Source of the DNA: Stramenopiles sp. TOSAG23-2
Lineage: Eukaryota; Sar
Direction: 5' to 3'
Assembly (NCBI GenBank): GCA_900128395.1
Contig: LT649323.1
Location: 1-37,649, forward strand
DNA length: 37,649 nucleotides
Shown: piece by piece, positions 3,254-22,787 of the stretch
Layout: every line of letters begins with the position of its first letter
Position numbering within the stretch: position 1 is the stretch's first letter
Notes under the pieces: generated by a model
Seen by the model: the letters and a program-made list of their open reading frames with translations, nothing else
What the model was told of the DNA's origin: nothing
The model's database searches: none
Made by a program: the position numbers and the translations under genes

Positions 3254-5236
3254 TTTTGCACCAACTTCATTCATTACACTTCGTAAAACATCTGTAAAAC
3301 CAAATTGGCCATTGTTGCCACGTAAATTATTATCATGTTGTTTTTGTAAATGGTCAAAAATAATCGATGGTATTACATAATAACCAAAGACAGTTAAAAA
3401 GGAATTATCATCATATCCAGGTACTTTCAAATGTGCAGTTGCTTCCTCCACTGTAGGCTTTTCTTTTAATGTGCTAATTTTCAATGTTTCATTTCCACCA
3501 GATAGCCATGTACCAGTAGCAGCACCAAAGTGTGAAATCACATCTCCAGGTGATTTCTGTAAACCAATCAATGCACTACCATCGCTACAAATTTCCTTAT
3601 AACATTCTAATATTTGCTGAACGCATGGATGTTTGTTGTCATGTTTGGTTTTATATAAATGATCGCCTAATACTAATAAAAATGTATCTTTCCCAATAGC
3701 ATCTTTTGCACAAAGAACAGCATTGCCAAATCCTTCTTGTTTCAGCTGTACAACAAGTTCGATTTTTTCACCTAAACGCAATATATTTTTTGCCATTAAT
3801 TTTTGTTGCTGGTTTAAACGTGCATAATTTTGTGCAGGTAAAGGTTTTTTGAAAAAACCTTCATATGCAGGCAAATCATTAGGTTGTACGACTATGATGA
3901 CTTTTTCAATACCACCATCAATTAACTCTTGAACCACTATTAAAATTGCTGGTTTAGCAATACCATCTTCATCAACGATTGGAAATAAAGGCGGGCAAAT
4001 CGATTTTGTTGCTGGAAATAAACCAAGTCCAAATCCAGCAGCTGGTATCAATGCTTTTTTAATATTCGATGAGGCTTCAATAACTAATTTCATGACTTCA
4101 ACGGATAAATCTTGTTCTAAAATTTGCTTTACTTCCTCTTGTGCCTCTTCACTTTTACATATAAATTGTGCCGTTCCATCGCCACCAGCACCAACACCTT
4201 TCCCACCATATACTAAATTTTGGATTTTTGGATATTCTAAAATTTTATGCAATACAGGAGCGGTTAATTGTGATGGGCAAACACCTTGTCCAGCACGATC
4301 AAAATGTTCTTGCGCTTCATTCATTAATTTGCCTAGCACCTCCGCGTTGCCCTCGGAAAATGCTTTCGATGCCCTAGAGGTAATATCCAAATTAATTGGA
4401 CCAAGTACATTTTGAACATCTTCTTGTTCTTTTGTTTGTGCTTTTGGATATGCACTTTGTAAATCGCGTAAAATAACAACCGTATCTTTCTTTGCTTTTA
4501 AATCAACAATACAATAATACAATGGTTTTGGTACACGTATTTCCGATACATCAAGAAATTCACCATCATAGATCATTGACACTGGCCTTGAACCAAATGC
4601 ACATGCTTGGTCCATTCGACCACACATAGATGGTGTTAATATTTCACCTTGATATGCATATTCCATCTCGCCACGTGTAGTCATTTTTAAATCATATACA
4701 CGATTGATTGCACGTGCAGTTAAAACACATACAGCAGCAGAACTGGATAACCCTTTTTTTAATGGTAAATCAGTTTTATAATTATTAATCACGATGCCGC
4801 TAATACGATAATCAGTTAATAATTTATATGCAACTCCAGCTGCATAGGACCAAAAATCACCTTTTTGTGCAGCTTCTAATAATTTTTTCTTTTCCATCGG
4901 TATTTCATGTGGTCCATATGTTTTTCCACTCTCATCCGTTGAACGTAAAATTAAACTACTTGGATGTTTCCAACATTCAGCATGTAAGCCTTGATTTGTA
5001 CCAACAACTAATGTACATCCTGGTTGAATTTCATCATTAAATCTACGAAATCCACCAGCCCAGTCGGAATGTTCACCAAAAAGACAAACTCGTCCAGGAA
5101 CAAATAAATAATGTGCTTCCGCATTTTTTGTACTATTATTATTACCACCACTATTACGTCCACCTATTGAAGTTTTTAATGCAACTGTATGTTCTTGCCT
5201 TGGTGATTTTGGTGGAGAAATGGTTAACGATGCCAT
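3176..5236 (-). CDS. Bifunctional GHMP sugar kinase / sugar-1-phosphate nucleotidyltransferase
   Basis: A two-domain enzyme of 686 residues. The N-terminal GHMP kinase has motif 1 at 47-62 (PGRVCLFGEHSDWAGG), the ATP-binding motif 2 at 161-168 (KGLSSSAA) and motif 3 at 344-354 (GGKGVGAGGDG). From about residue 393 a GalU-like nucleotidyltransferase follows (KKALIPAAGFGLGLFPATK), with a GDHLY segment later. By family logic the first half would phosphorylate a free sugar at C1 and the second would turn the sugar phosphate into a nucleotide sugar; the sugar cannot be told from sequence. Oddly, the usual GxGTRxxPxTK signature reads GFGLGLFPATK, so the Thr-Arg pair is missing. The first 40 or so residues are a low-complexity leader. 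Both ends of the gene are partly duplicated outside the gene. Domain calls are firm; the substrate is open. Confidence 0.85.
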   Translation of the reverse strand: MASLTISPPKSPRQEHTVALKTSIGGRNSGGNNNSTKNAEAHYLFVPGRVCLFGEHSDWAGGFRRFNDEIQPGCTLVVGTNQGLHAECWKHPSSLILRSTDESGKTYGPHEIPMEKKKLLEAAQKGDFWSYAAGVAYKLLTDYRISGIVINNYKTDLPLKKGLSSSAAVCVLTARAINRVYDLKMTTRGEMEYAYQGEILTPSMCGRMDQACAFGSRPVSMIYDGEFLDVSEIRVPKPLYYCIVDLKAKKDTVVILRDLQSAYPKAQTKEQEDVQNVLGPINLDITSRASKAFSEGNAEVLGKLMNEAQEHFDRAGQGVCPSQLTAPVLHKILEYPKIQNLVYGGKGVGAGGDGTAQFICKSEEAQEEVKQILEQDLSVEVMKLVIEASSNIKKALIPAAGFGLGLFPATKSICPPLFPIVDEDGIAKPAILIVVQELIDGGIEKVIIVVQPNDLPAYEGFFKKPLPAQNYARLNQQQKLMAKNILRLGEKIELVVQLKQEGFGNAVLCAKDAIGKDTFLLVLGDHLYKTKHDNKHPCVQQILECYKEICSDGSALIGLQKSPGDVISHFGAATGTWLSGGNETLKISTLKEKPTVEEATAHLKVPGYDDNSFLTVFGYYVIPSIIFDHLQKQHDNNLRGNNGQFGFTDVLRSVMNEVGAKGLVMKGERFDLGTPEHFLTTTRNWK

Positions 5237-15370: not shown

Positions 15371-15898
15371 TCAATCGACATTCAACGATTTTCGTTTGAC
15401 ATCACGAAGTATAAAATTCGTATCTTTCCCCTCTTCTAGACGTTCTTTGCATTCCAATAATTTTCCAACAATACCGACGGTGAAACTTGTACTATACATG
15501 CCATCGAATTCTTTTAACATTTTGGTTGGAATGGTTACTTCGTTTGGTATACCATCTTCGGCTAACTTATTGATATTATTTAATGCTACGTCAAAATTAA
15601 TTATTGCATCAGTCAATTCATTAGTTAAAGTATCATGTGCATTAACATTTTGACTTGAGCTACTTGAACTAGATCTTTCCAGCTCTTTCTCTTTTTTTTC
15701 GATTGAAACATCTTGAATATTTGTATAAAACGTTTGTTTAAAGGTATCTAAAAGTGAAATGGATTTCATAATATTTTCTTGCAAATTTTTAATAGCAGTA
15801 GTGGACCCACCTGTTTCTAATTTATTTACATTATTATTATTATTATTTGTTCTTTTATTTGATCCACCATCTGCATCTTCTCTTTTTCTTTTCTTCAT
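15371..15898 (-). CDS. MED10: Probable Mediator complex subunit 10
   Basis: A 175-residue protein. A basic, Asn-rich start (KKRKRE, poly-Asn) with a possible nuclear signal precedes helical parts at 36-62 and 92-175, split by a Ser run (76-82). The C-terminal half has the MED10 order: a helix NELTDAIINFDVALNNI, then IPTKMLKEFD, where family members have a (V/I)P-hydrophobic-x-x-(Y/F)-(I/F)-D segment, then a Lys/Glu-rich helix. MED10 belongs to the middle module of Mediator, which links transcription factors to RNA polymerase II. Similarity is by eye and modest; another small nuclear helical protein is possible. The transposon has inserted about 250 bp upstream of its start. Confidence 0.5.
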   Translation of the reverse strand: MKKRKREDADGGSNKRTNNNNNNVNKLETGGSTTAIKNLQENIMKSISLLDTFKQTFYTNIQDVSIEKKEKELERSSSSSSSQNVNAHDTLTNELTDAIINFDVALNNINKLAEDGIPNEVTIPTKMLKEFDGMYSTSFTVGIVGKLLECKERLEEGKDTNFILRDVKRKSLNVD

Positions 15899-16143
15899 TG
15901 TTATTTTTTTATGTTTCTGTTAGAGGGGTTATATGTGTAGATAGATGAATGTGTTTAGATATATTTGCATGTCTTTACATTTATATATTTGAATGATGAA
16001 GACTTGTGTATTATCTATATAGTTTATAGTTGTTTTTAAGTTATAGTTTTTGTTCAACAAAACAACACAGTCGTCTATATTATCGTCTACTTGGTAGTTA
16101 TGTGAAAATTTGCTAGTGTTATACTACCTATCATAATATATAA
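15899..16143. promoter_or_regulatory. Upstream flank of the MED10-like gene, interrupted by the transposon
   Basis: About 245 bp lie between the start codon and the target-site duplication of the mobile element, so the element sits in or near the promoter. No specific promoter motif is recognised. Confidence 0.35.
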
Positions 16144-16149
16144 GTATGA
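16144..16149. repeat. Target-site duplication, left copy (GTATGA)
   Basis: GTATGA directly precedes the left terminal repeat and is found again directly after the right one (20811-20816). Confidence 0.8.
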
Positions 16150-16346
16150 TACAGTGCATCTCACTTTGGAATCAATATTTTATTAAGGTAGAAATGGAAC
16201 CATTTGGAACACAGTATTATAATCACAGAATGAAATGGAATCATAAAGTACCTTAAATATTAAAAAAGTAAAAATTTAGACAATTATTTTTTCCTTGGTT
16301 CCTCTTGTTCCAGTTGATTCCGTTTTACTCCAATGCATTCCTGTTT

Positions 16347-17057
16347 CTATGCAAATTCGCCCATTCCTTTGAAAAATGGAACAAAATGCAAATATCCGAC
16401 ATTATTTGAAGGAATTTTTAAAAGTTTCAATCGACGCGATACACAAACATAGTTATTTTCCCATGTTCTAATGAAAATACAAGGGATAATTCCATCAACA
16501 TTTTTCATTCCTGGATTGGGAGGATTTGTTGCTGTTGGCGAATTAATAACTGGAAAATCTGGTCCCAAATTGAAGCTGTATTCTCTATTGTGTATTCTAA
16601 CAGGTACAATTTGCTTGAAACCATCATTGTCAAATTTTGCATAGAACTTCTGCTCTTCACAATGGAAAAATGCGGAAAGAAAACTGTCATCATCATTGTT
16701 TTTACAATATTGTTTACCGCCACCATAATGCAATCGTTTTTGTTTATCTTCTGCACTTTCATCATCAATATCATAGCTACTATCTAGCATATGTAGCGCT
16801 TGCATCATATGAAACTTGTCTGTAACATGCTTTGGCCAATCTTTTGATCCTGTATTGGCAGATTTTGCCCATACTTTTACCCTTCGTATAAAACCCTCAA
16901 AAACACGATCGTTTCCTTCAATGTATCGATAATCAAAAGCAGCTGCTATTAAATTTAACATGTTTGGACGTGCCATGACAAAGAACTTATAAAACTGTTT
17001 CCAACTACCATCTCGTTCCTTTAATAATACTTCAGTAATTTTTTGGCCTCCCCAATA
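16347..17057 (-). pseudogene. C-terminal part of the transposase-like protein, in the -1 frame
   Basis: An open frame from just after a TGA at 17058-17060 down to the stop at 16347. It has 209 codons from its first ATG (16976), but the frame is open above that ATG and reads on protein-like (YWGGQKITEVLLKERDGSW, then KQFYKFF), overlapping the end of the 539-codon frame. So it is most simply the continuation of that protein after a one-base frame change between 17024 and 17057. Residues are mixed and well ordered (IAAAFDYRYIEGNDRVF, FIRRVKVWAK). No family is recognised. It could also be a separate small gene starting at 16976. Confidence 0.55.
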
Positions 17058-18640
17058 TCAAAGTTGTCCTGTCCCATTTTTTTTATTATTTCTTTATATC
17101 GTACAGAGCATATTGTATTACATGGTATTAATTCAGGATTATGCTTAATATTGGCACACCACCCTCTATATTTTGTTGTATTTGAACCCACCCCTGCCAC
17201 CCCAAAAAATTTATAAAAGGCCACACCGTCCATCATGCAAATTACTTCAATTAATTCATCTAAATTTGAAATTTGATGCAAAATATTTTTCAATGCAGAA
17301 TGAAAACCTTCATGATTTCTTGAATATCCTGTAGCTAACGAATAAAATTTTTGGTATGTATGGAATTCATGCATGGACTGTTCATCATCTCTATCAGGAT
17401 AGGGCACCAGGACCATTTGCATAATGCTATTCTTATCTTGCACATTTCCTTTTGCATAATCATCATACCAAAGCATTAAAACGATTTTATTATCCTTAAT
17501 ATCTTGTAATATTTTACATGTTATTTCATTTTCTTGTAGCTCCGTTTTTAAGGATGAACGTAAACGATTCCAAGTTGTCTTTGTTTGATTCCATTCGATT
17601 CTAGATTGTTCAGGCAATTCACTTGGCAATATTTTCCAAATGTCAATATCAATAAACGTTCCATTTGTTCCATTTGCTTCCATATTGGTCTGATGTGATT
17701 CCAAGATGGATTTTAACTTTTCCTCTGTTTCCTTAATCTGATCACGAATTGCTCTTAATGTTTCATTACTGTCAATAGCATTGTTTAAGGAACCGTTTAA
17801 TTCCAAATAATTTTTCATCTTCATCTTTATCTTAATATCACGTTTTGATAAATCCAATAACATTGAGTCTATGTTTAATACAGCTACACCATTCAACATA
17901 TTGCATTCTGGTATACCAATTTCATTTGGCAGTTTCAATACAATGATGCGATATATTTGTTCAGAAGTCAAAATCCCATGATATATATGGGATGTATTCA
18001 CTGTATGTTCTATGAAACTCTTTAATGTACTATGGCTTAGATGCTTTCTAAGAAAGGTAACAAACAAATAATGCAATGATAAAAACAAATCATGTTTGTG
18101 TGTGGCATTATAGTAGATGCTTGTGCCATTGATAGTTTTGGTTACAACATTATTAATTGCCTTATATAAACTTGGGTATATACGATGATACTTGCATTTG
18201 TTGTCATTTGTACATTTCCTGCATGGTGGTAAAGGTGGTGGACCATATATGGTTTGGGATGCAGTTGATATAACTGATGGAACGCCATTTTTATCACTAC
18301 TACTGCAATTATTATTATTATCATTGTTAGTGTTATCATCAAACATATTATCATTGTTAGTGTTATCATCAAACATATTGAAGTCATCATTATCGTTATT
18401 GGCACGGCGACGCTTATTATTTTGTTTTTTGTTTGCTTCATATCGATTGTGCTCACTTAATTTATAAATAGATATTTCATTTTTAAATGTTACTTTCAAT
18501 ATATTCTTGTTGCATTTAATGCATTTAATGAGTATTAGATCTGAATCATCTTGTTGATGTGCTGTATAATAATCATCCATCATTGTCAGATCTACATTAG
18601 GTGCAGACCCATCGTCTTTAAAAGCTTCACTGAGAAGCAT
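17021..18640 (-). CDS. Transposase-like protein of the mobile element (N-terminal frame)
   Basis: A 539-residue open frame of unknown family. Visible parts: an acidic start; a CxxC at 40-43 and a second Cys cluster at 140-152 (CRKCTNDNKCKYH), which may bind zinc and so DNA; a 10-residue duplication inside an Asn/Asp tract (88-107, from two 30-bp DNA copies at 18319-18378); a coiled-coil-like part (about 290-316); and a globular end with LWYDDYAKGN (390-399) and ICMMDGVAFYKFFG (467-480). The acidic residues in those last two motifs could be part of a DDE/D catalytic site, but this is a guess. The role is inferred from position inside inverted repeats. An acceptor-like CTTACAG lies just before the start, so an upstream exon cannot be excluded. 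Confidence 0.6.
   Translation of the reverse strand: MLLSEAFKDDGSAPNVDLTMMDDYYTAHQQDDSDLILIKCIKCNKNILKVTFKNEISIYKLSEHNRYEANKKQNNKRRRANNDNDDFNMFDDNTNNDNMFDDNTNNDNNNNCSSSDKNGVPSVISTASQTIYGPPPLPPCRKCTNDNKCKYHRIYPSLYKAINNVVTKTINGTSIYYNATHKHDLFLSLHYLFVTFLRKHLSHSTLKSFIEHTVNTSHIYHGILTSEQIYRIIVLKLPNEIGIPECNMLNGVAVLNIDSMLLDLSKRDIKIKMKMKNYLELNGSLNNAIDSNETLRAIRDQIKETEEKLKSILESHQTNMEANGTNGTFIDIDIWKILPSELPEQSRIEWNQTKTTWNRLRSSLKTELQENEITCKILQDIKDNKIVLMLWYDDYAKGNVQDKNSIMQMVLVPYPDRDDEQSMHEFHTYQKFYSLATGYSRNHEGFHSALKNILHQISNLDELIEVICMMDGVAFYKFFGVAGVGSNTTKYRGWCANIKHNPELIPCNTICSVRYKEIIKKMGQDNFDIGEAKKLLKYY
18319..18378. repeat. 30-bp tandem duplication in the transposase-like gene
   Basis: Two exact 30-bp copies (18319-18348 and 18349-18378) give a repeated 10-residue Asn/Asp-rich peptide and keep the frame. 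Confidence 0.9.
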
Positions 18641-20794
18641 TTCTGTAAGTCGGTAAGTATATATCTATATGGAACTATATATATTGTATATAAATATATG
18701 TGGAATGATGCGGAACAAACAATTATTCATATGGAACTATATATATTGTAATATAAATATATGTGGAATGATGCCGAATAAAATATACTATTGTATAATA
18801 AATTCATACAATTTTTGATATAAATTAGGATTATATTCAACTTGACAAAACAATATTGAATGGAGCAGAGCAATGCGGAATCAAATGGCGATATATGGAA
18901 CTGATATATGTATGAATTTAAATTATATTAATTTGAATGTTTGTATATAGAGCTTGCAGAACTACTAAGAATATTATGGAATCGAACGGAACAGGATTGA
19001 AAAAATGTACAGAGTTATAAATCTATATTTTATATTATACAATAATTTTGTATTTATTGCTTCCGTATAATGCTATTTCATTCCATGTTGTTCCATGTTT
19101 AGAATTTTTCTTATCTTGTATGAATCTGTATCTATTTGATTCCATATGGTTCTATTTGTTTCATCGAGAAAATAAAAATTTTCACTAAGTTAAAAAAAAA
19201 AAGGGTCTTTTTATACTTTGTGTTTTTTTTTTTACTTTTAAAATCCATACAAATTACATTAAATAAAGACACTACAAATTATTGTATGGGAAAACTAATT
19301 TTCCCCCTAGATAGATAACAAAAGTTCTCATTGATGTTTTAAATTTCCAGAATGTTGTGCAACACAATAGACAACATCTTTTATCTTTTATACTTCGTAT
19401 ACAAATTAACACTAATAACAATGGGGAATTTAAATTAAATTGATTAAATGCACAATTACTTTTCCACCATCAATATTTTGAGTTTTATATTTTATATAGT
19501 ACTTTATCTCACAGTTAAAGTACAAAAACTCTCCTAAATGTCGATATAGTCATTCACAATGAGGTAATAACATAAGCACAGCATTACTTCCAAAAGACCA
19601 TTTTTTGTGTTCTGAAAAATCACGTTATTTGATTCCATGTGCTTCCAAATTTTTTCTAACCACTCAATGGCAAAATAGCATAGAATTAGCACTAGGTGCA
19701 GTCTGACTGTATCCAAAATCACGTTATTTGATTCCATTTGGTTCTACTTTTCTCCATGTTTTGACACTAACACTACAAACAAAGTACTTAATGACCCCTA
19801 TATTAATAAATTTAAATTTTCACGTTGAAGAAAAATTTTACCAATTTTTTGGAAATACACCCACTAATTACATACTATAAATACATATAAATAAAAAACA
19901 TATATATACATCAAAGATATAAATACACATAACTTTTGATCTAGAGCTCCCTAGAACTTCTAGATGTATAGATAGATTGATACTTACATTAGAAAATATA
20001 TATATATATATATATATAGATAGAATAGATAGATAGAATTAAATAGAAAAAATTAAAATTAAATAGAAAAAAGTAAGTATTCTCATTTTCTAAAATTAAA
20101 AATATTTTTTAAATATATTTTAGTTCCATTTGATTCTAATATGTTCTGTTATAACAATTCCAGATGGTTCCATTTAGTTCTAAAAATATCCAATTAATAT
20201 TTTATAAATTTATTGTTTAAGAATGAAATGGAACCATATAGAACCTTTCAAATAGAATCGACAGGAATCAAATGGAACAACACAAAAAGTTTTTGTTAAA
20301 ATTAAAATGAAAATGTTTTATTTTTTTTTTTATTTTTTTTTTATTTTATTTTTTTTTTTTTGGAATGAAATGGAAGAAAATGGAGACGTACTTTTTTCAA
20401 AAGATGAAAAATTAATAATATTAAGGTAAATTTTGAAACATCAATGTCATAGGTACATGTCGAATATTTAAGTACATCTTTAAAGTATATATCGAAAGAA
20501 GAAGTAAAGTTGTAAAAATTGCTTAAATTTTTCATGGAAAGGAAGTTGATAGGAAATTTTTGGTCGTATTGTTGAAATTATTCCGCGTAGCTTTATTCCT
20601 GTTGGTTCTGTCGGGTTCCATGAGTTGTTTTTAGTTTAAGGCTTGCATGGCAAGGAATACAAGTACTGGGCCTGGAATATATTGCGGTAACTACACAGCA
20701 TTACACAGGGAATATAGTATTTTTGGATTTTAACTAACTAAGAAACTATTCCAGTTGATTCATTGTGGTTCTGTATGATTCCAGATAATTCAAG
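18641..20794. repeat. Non-coding right arm of the transposon, with dispersed GGAATC/GGAACC motifs
   Basis: About 2.15 kb with no credible gene. It carries many copies of a degenerate 16-bp motif close to GGAATCAAATGGAACC, on both strands. Clear ones are near 18840-18900, 18970-18990, 19080-19100, 19138-19160, 19628-19650, 19725-19745, 20123-20180, 20222-20280, 20358-20380, 20590-20625 and 20750-20785. A 62-bp duplication (about 18667-18780) and repeated ATCACGTTATTTGATTCCAT strings (19618 and 19717) add to it. Similar motifs occur in the left arm (16166-16345). They are scarce outside the element. Confidence 0.7.
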
Positions 20795-20810
20795 AGTGAG
20801 ATGTACTGTA

Positions 20811-20816
20811 GTATGA
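20811..20816. repeat. Target-site duplication, right copy (GTATGA)
   Basis: Directly follows the right terminal repeat; matches 16144-16149. Confidence 0.8.
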
Positions 20817-21002: not shown

Positions 21003-22787
21003 TCATATCTTAAAAATTGATTTATTGTTTTTATGATAAAAGTCTCCATACTTCAAAATATATTCAGGTATGTATTTCTCATATCGTTTCCATCTTCCTA
21101 TGAATTTACTAGTTAAACCTTGTTTTACTTGTAATGAGCTTACTGTATGGGTAAACTTTTTATTTAAGTAAAACTTTAACATGGATTCTTCAAATTCAAT
21201 TGTTTCATCATCATTATCATTTTGTTGTATATTTTGATGTACAAATAGCTTATCTAATGTCCGCCTTGGATCCTCTATTAGTTTCTCGTATGAAATATCA
21301 AGCATATGAATTCCAAGACGCTTCCAAGTAGACATTGTTTCAACGTATTGCTTGTAATATTCCTCAATATAATTTGATTTTAATGACCACACCATACCAT
21401 TACTGCGAAAATCATTTAAGAAAATACTTATAAATACATCACGAGGATCTCTCATTATATGAATAATCGTTGATTTTGGAAACATAGCAGTAATAAATGG
21501 GATGTAGCGAATGTTTTGTGGTGTTTTATCAGTTAAATATGATATCTTTATATCCTCGCAAATATTACCATCCTCTTTTAATGATGTCGCTTTGATGTAA
21601 TCTTGAAGTTTAACATTAAAATCATCATGCAATTTCGCCAAATGTGGTTTATCAACGAATGATGGTGTATAATTATTTTTCTTTGTCACTGCTATGGTTG
21701 GTGCTACTTCACTTATTAATCCACTTTCACCTAAACATTTTATTTTTGAATGTGAGCACAATATTTTTTCCAGTAAACTTGTACCAGAACGTGGCATTCC
21801 AATAATGAAAATCATTTTCTTATCTAAACATGGAGTATTGCTTTGATTGATTCCTGGAACTGGATTAAAATTGGTATAGTTGAATATATGTTTATTATTG
21901 TATATCACACGTACAGCTGATAAATAAAAAAAGATTTCCTTTAAAATAGATGGCGGGACAATTCCATCTTCATCCTCTAAATTAGAAATTTTACGTAAAG
22001 CATGTTTTGAATTTCCATTTCGTTTTTCTTTTTCGATAATTTGTAATAATTTCATTCTGTTTGCTTTGTCACTGAGATTAAATGCTATTTTTTCATTATC
22101 AATACGCATTGTAGCTTTGTCGTAATATTCTGCTAGATTATATAACACAAATGGTGATAGTTTAGTCGTAATGTTTTTTTTGGCATTTTGTTGTAATTCC
22201 ATTGAATCTTCTAATAATATTGAATTCATTTTATCATTACAAATTTCAATCTTTTGTTTATCATAAAACTTGGAGCAATATTCAGTCCAAATATCTTCGT
22301 ATGAAGGAATTGTGAATAATGTATAATTGTTTATATTATTTTCCATATATATATCTTGATTTTGTTCTATTTCTATTAATATTTTTAGTGCATCTTCATG
22401 CTTTCCTTGTTGATTCAAAATCCAAACATATGCAAATAGATATTTTTCTCGATTTATATTTATTGCTTTTAATATAAATTTTTCTGCTAATGAAGGATTT
22501 TTTTTTGAATAATTAAATGATATCACAGCTAATATATACAATGGATCGCTCATGAATGGACATACATTAATACAATTTTTCAAATCTATTTCAATTGATA
22601 ATATTGTATCTGGAGATGCATTCGGTGATTCTATGAATTTCAAACGCACATCATCAATCGTTTGTTTAACCAATATTTGACATTCATGATAAATATTCGC
22701 ATTTGTCAATAATAGTACATTACAAAGTAATAATATCATAATGATGGTCCGTATTATCATTTTTAGATACAGTATATATATATCCAC
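21003..22787 (-). CDS. Secretory-pathway sulfotransferase with N-terminal helical (TPR-like) region
   Basis: A 594-residue protein. A hydrophobic segment at 11-30 is a signal peptide or anchor; translation may start at Met1 or Met10. Residues 35-300 are helical with TPR-like parts (for example around AEKFILKAININREKYLFA). The catalytic domain starts near 325: the PAPS 5'-phosphosulfate loop IFIIGMPRSGTSLLEK at 326-341 and the 3'-phosphate motif IMRDPRDVFISIF at 444-456. These define the Sulfotransfer_3/TPST-like superfamily, which moves sulfate from PAPS to sugars or tyrosine in the Golgi. The acceptor is unknown. It sits beside other surface-glycan-type genes. Confidence 0.85.
   Translation of the reverse strand: MDIYILYLKMIIRTIIMILLLCNVLLLTNANIYHECQILVKQTIDDVRLKFIESPNASPDTILSIEIDLKNCINVCPFMSDPLYILAVISFNYSKKNPSLAEKFILKAININREKYLFAYVWILNQQGKHEDALKILIEIEQNQDIYMENNINNYTLFTIPSYEDIWTEYCSKFYDKQKIEICNDKMNSILLEDSMELQQNAKKNITTKLSPFVLYNLAEYYDKATMRIDNEKIAFNLSDKANRMKLLQIIEKEKRNGNSKHALRKISNLEDEDGIVPPSILKEIFFYLSAVRVIYNNKHIFNYTNFNPVPGINQSNTPCLDKKMIFIIGMPRSGTSLLEKILCSHSKIKCLGESGLISEVAPTIAVTKKNNYTPSFVDKPHLAKLHDDFNVKLQDYIKATSLKEDGNICEDIKISYLTDKTPQNIRYIPFITAMFPKSTIIHIMRDPRDVFISIFLNDFRSNGMVWSLKSNYIEEYYKQYVETMSTWKRLGIHMLDISYEKLIEDPRRTLDKLFVHQNIQQNDNDDETIEFEESMLKFYLNKKFTHTVSSLQVKQGLTSKFIGRWKRYEKYIPEYILKYGDFYHKNNKSIFKI

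What the first reader, a model, noticed from the sequence alone, without database searches (positions are those of the whole stretch)
16144..20816. An apparently undescribed 4.66-kb DNA transposon, complete to its ends
The ends TACAGTGCATCTCACT and the complement of TACAGTACATCTCACT differ at one of 16 bases and are exactly flanked by GTATGA on both sides. The enclosed protein is not one I can place in a known superfamily: it has possible zinc clusters and two acidic motifs (WYDDYAKG and MMDGVAFYKF) but no textbook transposase signature. With a 6-bp duplication it does not fit the TA-target Tc1/mariner, the TTAA-target piggyBac, or 8-bp hAT elements. The inverted repeats and flanking duplication are seen directly; novelty is inference.
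Basis: partly seen in the sequence, partly recalled or inferred. Interest (0 to 1): 0.8.

Follow-up and report, generated by a model that had tools for sequence, protein, structure and literature searches.

The report
Orphan DNA transposon, internally deleted
A small eukaryote-like genome carries a jumping-gene copy with intact ends but a damaged enzyme gene, and its enzyme belongs to a small family that matched no transposon family in the libraries searched, so it is a good candidate for an undescribed lineage of cut-and-paste transposons.

Summary
A 4661-bp element (16150-20810) has 15/16 terminal inverted repeats and GTATGA on both sides, the only such pair in the window outside AT microsatellites. 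The 17.45-Mb assembly holds no second pair of these ends and no empty-site allele.

The two-frame protein is explained. Both relatives that span the gap between the window's two coding blocks (C775, P0002) carry 0.8-1.1 kb more there; the window copy lost it and the frame changes at the junction. It is end-complete but probably non-autonomous, like Ds.

No transposase family in Pfam, NCBIfam or PHROGs matched. The third is unassigned.

TA..TA ends and a 6-bp duplication resemble IS3EU, but no conserved acidic residue lies 30-40 residues after the second Asp. Helically phased words differ between relatives: GGAAY every 10 bp here, GGCAT every 11 bp around C775.

Verdict: a real DNA transposon, perhaps a new lineage.

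The parts
16144..16149 (.). left copy of the 6-bp target site duplication, GTATGA
16150..16172 (+). left terminal inverted repeat (16-bp core TACAGTGCATCTCACT, 15/16; 23 nt at 87%)
16347..17057 (-). ORF2, 236 aa: C-terminal block of the transposase; 46% identical to C775
16896..16919 (-). conserved block beginning E and ending E (EGNDRVFE); its last E (16896-16898) is the favoured candidate for the third catalytic residue
   Evidence: alignment of window, C775 and P0002; the matching P0002 stretch is a helix in a part of the model with pLDDT under 50; the assignment is inference
17022..17044 (-). internal deletion junction: 23 bp here where C775 has 1110 bp (measured on P0002: 71 bp at 16986-17056 where P0002 has 285 residues); the reading frame changes here
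17021..18664 (-). ORF1, 547 aa: Cys/His-containing N-terminal part, Asn/Asp-rich linker, and the D1-D2 block (57% identical to C775 over 148 aa)
17228..17230 (-). Asp of the second acidic motif, MMDG, two residues after predicted strand 4
17459..17464 (-). two Asp of the first acidic motif, WYDDY, directly after predicted strand 1
16168..20786 (.). 53 GGAA[TC] words on both strands, some in coding sequence, in groups with spacing peaks at 10, 20 and 31 bp; 9 pairs at 9-11 bp, against a mean of 0.08 and a maximum of 1 in 200 shuffles
20123..20278 (.). imperfect palindrome containing the same words (74-nt arms, 70% complementary; single-strand DNA fold z -7.3 for 20115-20285)
20788..20810 (-). 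right terminal inverted repeat
20811..20816 (.). right copy of the 6-bp target site duplication, GTATGA

Best explanation
The element is a cut-and-paste DNA transposon from a lineage not found in the family libraries searched. Its transposase would bind the ends, helped by phased subterminal GGAAY words, cut with an RNase H-like DD(E/D) active site, and join the element to a target with a 6-bp stagger, which repair turns into the GTATGA duplication. The window copy has intact ends but has lost about 0.8-1.1 kb of the transposase gene between the second Asp and the C-terminal block, so it is probably non-autonomous and could move only if a transposase of its own family is supplied from elsewhere. 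Shown: ends, duplication, a conserved protein with signs of purifying selection, the gap relative to two spanning relatives, the phased words. Inferred: the RNase H fold (low-confidence models), the catalytic residues, binding to the words, cut-and-paste movement, loss of autonomy.
For: Inverted ends with a duplication, unique in the window outside microsatellites. Relatives of the protein: C775 (979-aa open frame), P0001 (677 aa; the one hit at E <= 0.01 among 5813 candidates) and P0002 (590 aa; with P0001 the two hits at E <= 10 among 82 candidates). Selection on the protein. Same order of strands in both models, with the two Asp motifs where an RNase H-like enzyme has its first two acidic residues (the comparison is recalled). 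The two best Foldseek rows for the window piece are RNase H1 (E 0.19 and 0.25, not significant). Phased words: 9 pairs at 9-11 bp against a shuffle maximum of 1. Gap.
Confidence: 0.8

Rival explanations
1. A very diverged member of a known superfamily of the hAT/P/MuDR/Kolobok/Dada group, for example a hAT with a 6-bp duplication, too distant for the profiles used.
For: hAT families with 5-, 6- and 7-bp duplications exist (PMC12730594, passages); the group makes 4-10 bp duplications and carries a C/DxxH motif after the second Asp (PMC3706591, passages). A mostly helical region lies between the second Asp and the C-terminal block in the weak model. A DxxH motif, DKYH or DKFH, is conserved in P0002, C775 and the window; if the third residue were the conserved E548 of P0002 rather than E468, that motif would lie in the expected interval.
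Against: No family of this group among the Pfam matches at E <= 1 (window, C775) or E <= 10 (P0001, P0002, C775). Between the second Asp and the favoured E468 no [CD]xxH motif is conserved. E548 lies between two predicted strands, not in a helix (pLDDT under 50).
Confidence: 0.3
2. A member of IS3EU/GingerRoot, whose complete families end TA..TA (IS3EU; GingerRoot mostly) and usually make 6-bp duplications.
For: Ends TACAG..CTGTA and a 6-bp duplication fit PMC10045372 (passages).
Against: No integrase-core family among the Pfam matches. No acidic residue is conserved between D97 and D168 of P0002 (P0002 against C775), so none sits 30-40 residues after the second Asp.
Confidence: 0.05
3. Not a transposon: a host or captured gene that happens to lie between chance inverted repeats.
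For: Single pair of ends; no empty site.
Against: Ends plus duplication are unique outside microsatellites and absent from 3 of 3 shuffles. Closely spaced word pairs (GGAA[TC], 3-6 bases, GGAA[TC]) number 9 inside the element and 0 in the rest of the window.
Confidence: 0.05
4. The window copy is intact in the organism and the missing middle of the gene is an assembly collapse.
For: The assembly is fragmented (793 contigs) and the region is AT-rich; reads could not be examined.
Against: The sequence lost is coding and non-repetitive in the two relatives that span it, C775 and P0002; P0001 carries its beginning but is a near copy of C775, so it is not independent.
Confidence: 0.1

Closest known systems
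IS3EU / GingerRoot
   Same: TA..TA termini and a 6-bp duplication
   Different: no conserved acidic residue at the integrase-type distance after the second Asp; no integrase-core Pfam match
hAT (hAT5, hAT6, hAT7 variants)
   Same: short terminal inverted repeats, subterminal repeats (as in Ac/Ds), a duplication length seen in hAT6, a long region between the second Asp and the C-terminal block
   Different: no hAT profile match; no [CD]xxH conserved between the second Asp and the favoured Glu; ends do not follow the usual hAT consensus (recalled)
Dada
   Same: 6-7 bp duplication; length at the low edge of the Dada range (4666-10979 bp in PMC3706591; this is 4661 bp)
   Different: Dada was reported without terminal inverted repeats and inside small RNA genes; this has terminal repeats, and no small RNA gene was recognised at the site
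Maize Ac/Ds
   Same: works like Ds-del: an end-complete copy with an internal deletion of the transposase gene, with subterminal repeats (PMC3260210, abstract start in a listing)
   Different: no sequence relationship found; Ac belongs to hAT
Galileo (P superfamily)
   Same: several transposase binding sites in the terminal regions (PMC3688188, title and abstract start in a listing)
   Different: very long terminal inverted repeats and a THAP domain; neither seen here

Membership tests
IS3EU/GingerRoot | 6-bp target duplication | tested here: met
   one copy; criterion from PMC10045372
IS3EU/GingerRoot | TA..TA termini | tested here: met
   TACAG..CTGTA
IS3EU/GingerRoot | integrase-type core with the Glu about 35 residues after the second Asp (recalled) | tested here: not met
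   no acidic residue conserved between D97 and D168 in P0002 against C775; no integrase among the Pfam matches. Rests on D97 being the second Asp, which is inferred
hAT | transposase recognised by hAT profiles | tested here: inconclusive
   no hAT family at E <= 10, but remote members can be missed; the fold look excludes nothing
hAT | 8-bp duplication (5-7 bp in named variants) | tested here: inconclusive
   6 bp fits only the hAT6 variant
hAT/P/MuDR/Kolobok/Dada group | C/DxxH motif after the second Asp | tested here: inconclusive
   DKYH/DKFH is conserved, but after the favoured Glu (E468) and before the alternative E548; criterion from PMC3706591
Dada | 6-7 bp duplication | tested here: met
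   criterion from PMC3706591
Dada | no terminal inverted repeats | tested here: not met
   terminal repeats of 15/16 present
Dada | insertion in a small RNA gene | tested here: inconclusive
   0 tRNAs and 0 Rfam families at gathering score in the window, but an interrupted gene could be missed; ARAGORN on the joined flanks found 0; Rfam on each 200-bp flank gave only matches far below gathering scores; the joined site was not run against Rfam
CMCT (EnSpm, Chapaev, Transib, Plavaka) | mostly CA..TG termini and 2-5 bp duplication | tested here: not met
   TA..TA and 6 bp; criterion from PMC12730594
CMCT (EnSpm, Chapaev, Transib, Plavaka) | C(2)C and H(3-4)H between the second Asp and the Glu | tested here: not met
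   neither is conserved between P0002 and C775
KDZ (Zisupton) | 8-bp duplication | tested here: not met
   6 bp; criterion from PMC12730594
Tc1/mariner and piggyBac | TA or TTAA target duplication (recalled) | tested here: not met
   GTATGA
RNase H-like DDE/D transposases as a fold class | RNase H-like core with three acidic residues | tested here: inconclusive

The most novel reading that the evidence does not exclude
A new superfamily of RNase H-like eukaryotic DNA transposons. Each family would pair its own transposase with its own helically phased subterminal word: GGAAY with spacing peaks at 10, 20 and 31 bp in the window element, GGCAT at 11, 22 and 33 bp around the C775 relative. The word that the enzyme reads would change between families while the D1-D2 core stays 57% identical, which makes protein-DNA co-evolution in a transposase directly testable.
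Probability: 0.45. Interest if true: 0.65.

Novelty: new variant of a known kind. Interest (0 to 1): 0.5.

Why it matters
If the lineage is new, the catalogue of eukaryotic cut-and-paste transposons gains a group whose transposase has no recognised profile, so annotation that relies on such profiles would leave its gene as a hypothetical protein. The contrast between two relatives with a similar enzyme core and different phased repeat words would be a natural experiment on how a transposase changes the DNA word it recognises.

Tried and rejected
Other copies: the pattern occurs exactly only at the two ends; with up to 3 mismatches the counts (162 forward, 139 reverse) do not exceed the reversed-pattern control (179, 152), so the weak matches look like chance. 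Ends of the C775 relative: a right end TACAGTATGAAACTGTA at 7850-7866 of L066 was guessed, but no partner was found in the 10,000 bases held and no convincing duplication; its matches elsewhere in the genome are about as many as the control (63 and 65 against 57 and 62). So a 6-bp duplication in a second family was not shown.

Empty site: the joined flanks match only their own two halves. Relatives elsewhere: none confirmed in viral contigs in 5 of 5 scans that ran, none in genome contigs in 2 of 2, none in the phage records at E <= 0.01. The first protein search (ORF1, 3938 candidates) gave none at E <= 0.001.

In the titles and abstract starts listed I saw no element of this description; the lists are capped, the library lacks most subscription journals and Repbase could not be searched, so absence from print is not claimed. 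I saw passages of PMC10045372, PMC12730594 and PMC3706591; other papers only in listings.

Mended after a check against the calls: the gap in C775 is 1110 bp and in P0002 285 residues; the weak Pfam matches, the extra helix, the repetition of one protein and the conserved DxxH are now told; the small-RNA-gene test is now inconclusive.
Full report
What is there. Between two frames on the minus strand, an unnamed 182-aa frame at 15371-15919 and a sulfotransferase-like gene ending at 21003, lies a 4661-bp element with 15/16 inverted ends and GTATGA on both sides. Of 33 inverted pairs in the window with identical 6-bp flanks, 32 are AT-microsatellite stretches and one is this element; 3 of 3 shuffles gave none.

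The protein and its relatives. A protein search of the same genome found one relative, on contig C775: 57% identity over the 148-aa D1-D2 block and 46% over the C-terminal block, in one 979-aa open frame. With the C775 protein as query an N-terminal fragment, duplicated, was also found on C227. In the large protein collection three searches gave two proteins: P0001 (96.6% identical to C775 over 413 residues; 5813 candidates) and P0002 (52% over the core; 82 candidates); the search with ORF1 gave none of 3938. P0001 and C775 are near copies, so the independent lines are three: window, C775/P0001, P0002. Between C775 and the window pN is 0.331 and pS 0.717 over 350 codons; synonymous change is near saturation, so the ratio is rough, but the off-frame controls on the D1-D2 block do not show the pattern. 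The frames have therefore been under selection as protein.

The internal deletion. C775 has 1110 bp between the two blocks where the window has 23; measured on P0002, 285 residues stand against 71 bp. The net difference is about 1.09 or 0.78 kb, and the frame changes there. C775 and P0002 align to each other across the gap, and P0001 carries its beginning, so the economical reading is a loss in the window copy. The copy has its ends but lacks part of its enzyme gene, as Ds-del elements do relative to Ac.

Repeat words. GGAA[TC] occurs 53 times in the element against a shuffle mean of 16.5 (maximum 27 of 200), with spacing peaks at 10, 20 and 31 bp. Around C775 the word is GGCAT, with peaks at 11, 22 and 33 bp: 14 pairs at 9-11 bp against a shuffle maximum of 1; its total (23) is not above the shuffle maximum (24). 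GGCAT is not enriched in the window element and GGAAY only slightly around C775. Phasing with the helix suggests a protein that binds along one face of the DNA; the transposase is the obvious candidate, but nothing here shows binding. Part of the array forms the palindrome at 20123-20278; a 97% copy of 20200-20361 stands on contig C122 without the rest of the element, perhaps a remnant of another copy.

Comparison. No profile in Pfam, NCBIfam or PHROGs matched at a meaningful level (the weak ones are listed under Tried and rejected). Termini and duplication fit IS3EU, but the active-site spacing does not. The duplication also fits hAT6 and Dada, with the mismatches in the membership table. Because a remote hAT-like membership cannot be excluded, I rate this a new variant of a known kind and give a new superfamily 0.45.

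Limits. One complete copy, one genome, an unidentified host, no reads, no Repbase. The ends of the C775 relative are undefined, so the 6-bp duplication rests on a single insertion and could be 7 bp.

Noticed in passing
L066 (C775):1230-2099 (+): An NAD-dependent epimerase-like gene, 70% identical to a Pseudoalteromonas plasmid protein, with 45.5% GC (frame 1176-2099) against 33% for the transposase and the next gene. GGCAT words stand on both sides of it: recent bacterial transfer, transposon cargo, or an assembly chimera.
   Followed up: partly
L066 (C775):2381-3319 (-) and 4173-4649 (+): Two further frames beside the transposase relative without Pfam matches: a 313-aa protein with a Cys-rich end and a 159-aa protein. 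No match to either in the window at E <= 1.
   Followed up: partly
L066 (C775):3646-4025: Three copies of a block beginning AAGTTAAAAAAAAGAAGCCCAAAGTAC upstream of the transposase gene (read by eye).
   Followed up: no
L067 (C122):3484-3643: A 97% copy of window 20200-20361 standing alone between A-rich runs.
   Followed up: partly
L075 (C227):3912-4121: A short stretch with long inverted ends (CACACAGTAATATTATT ... AATAATATTACTGTGTG), a possible MITE (read by eye).
   Followed up: no
L075 (C227):4758-5166: An N-terminal fragment of the transposase, 100% identical to C775 over 62 residues and followed by a second copy, 69% over 78 residues.
   Followed up: partly
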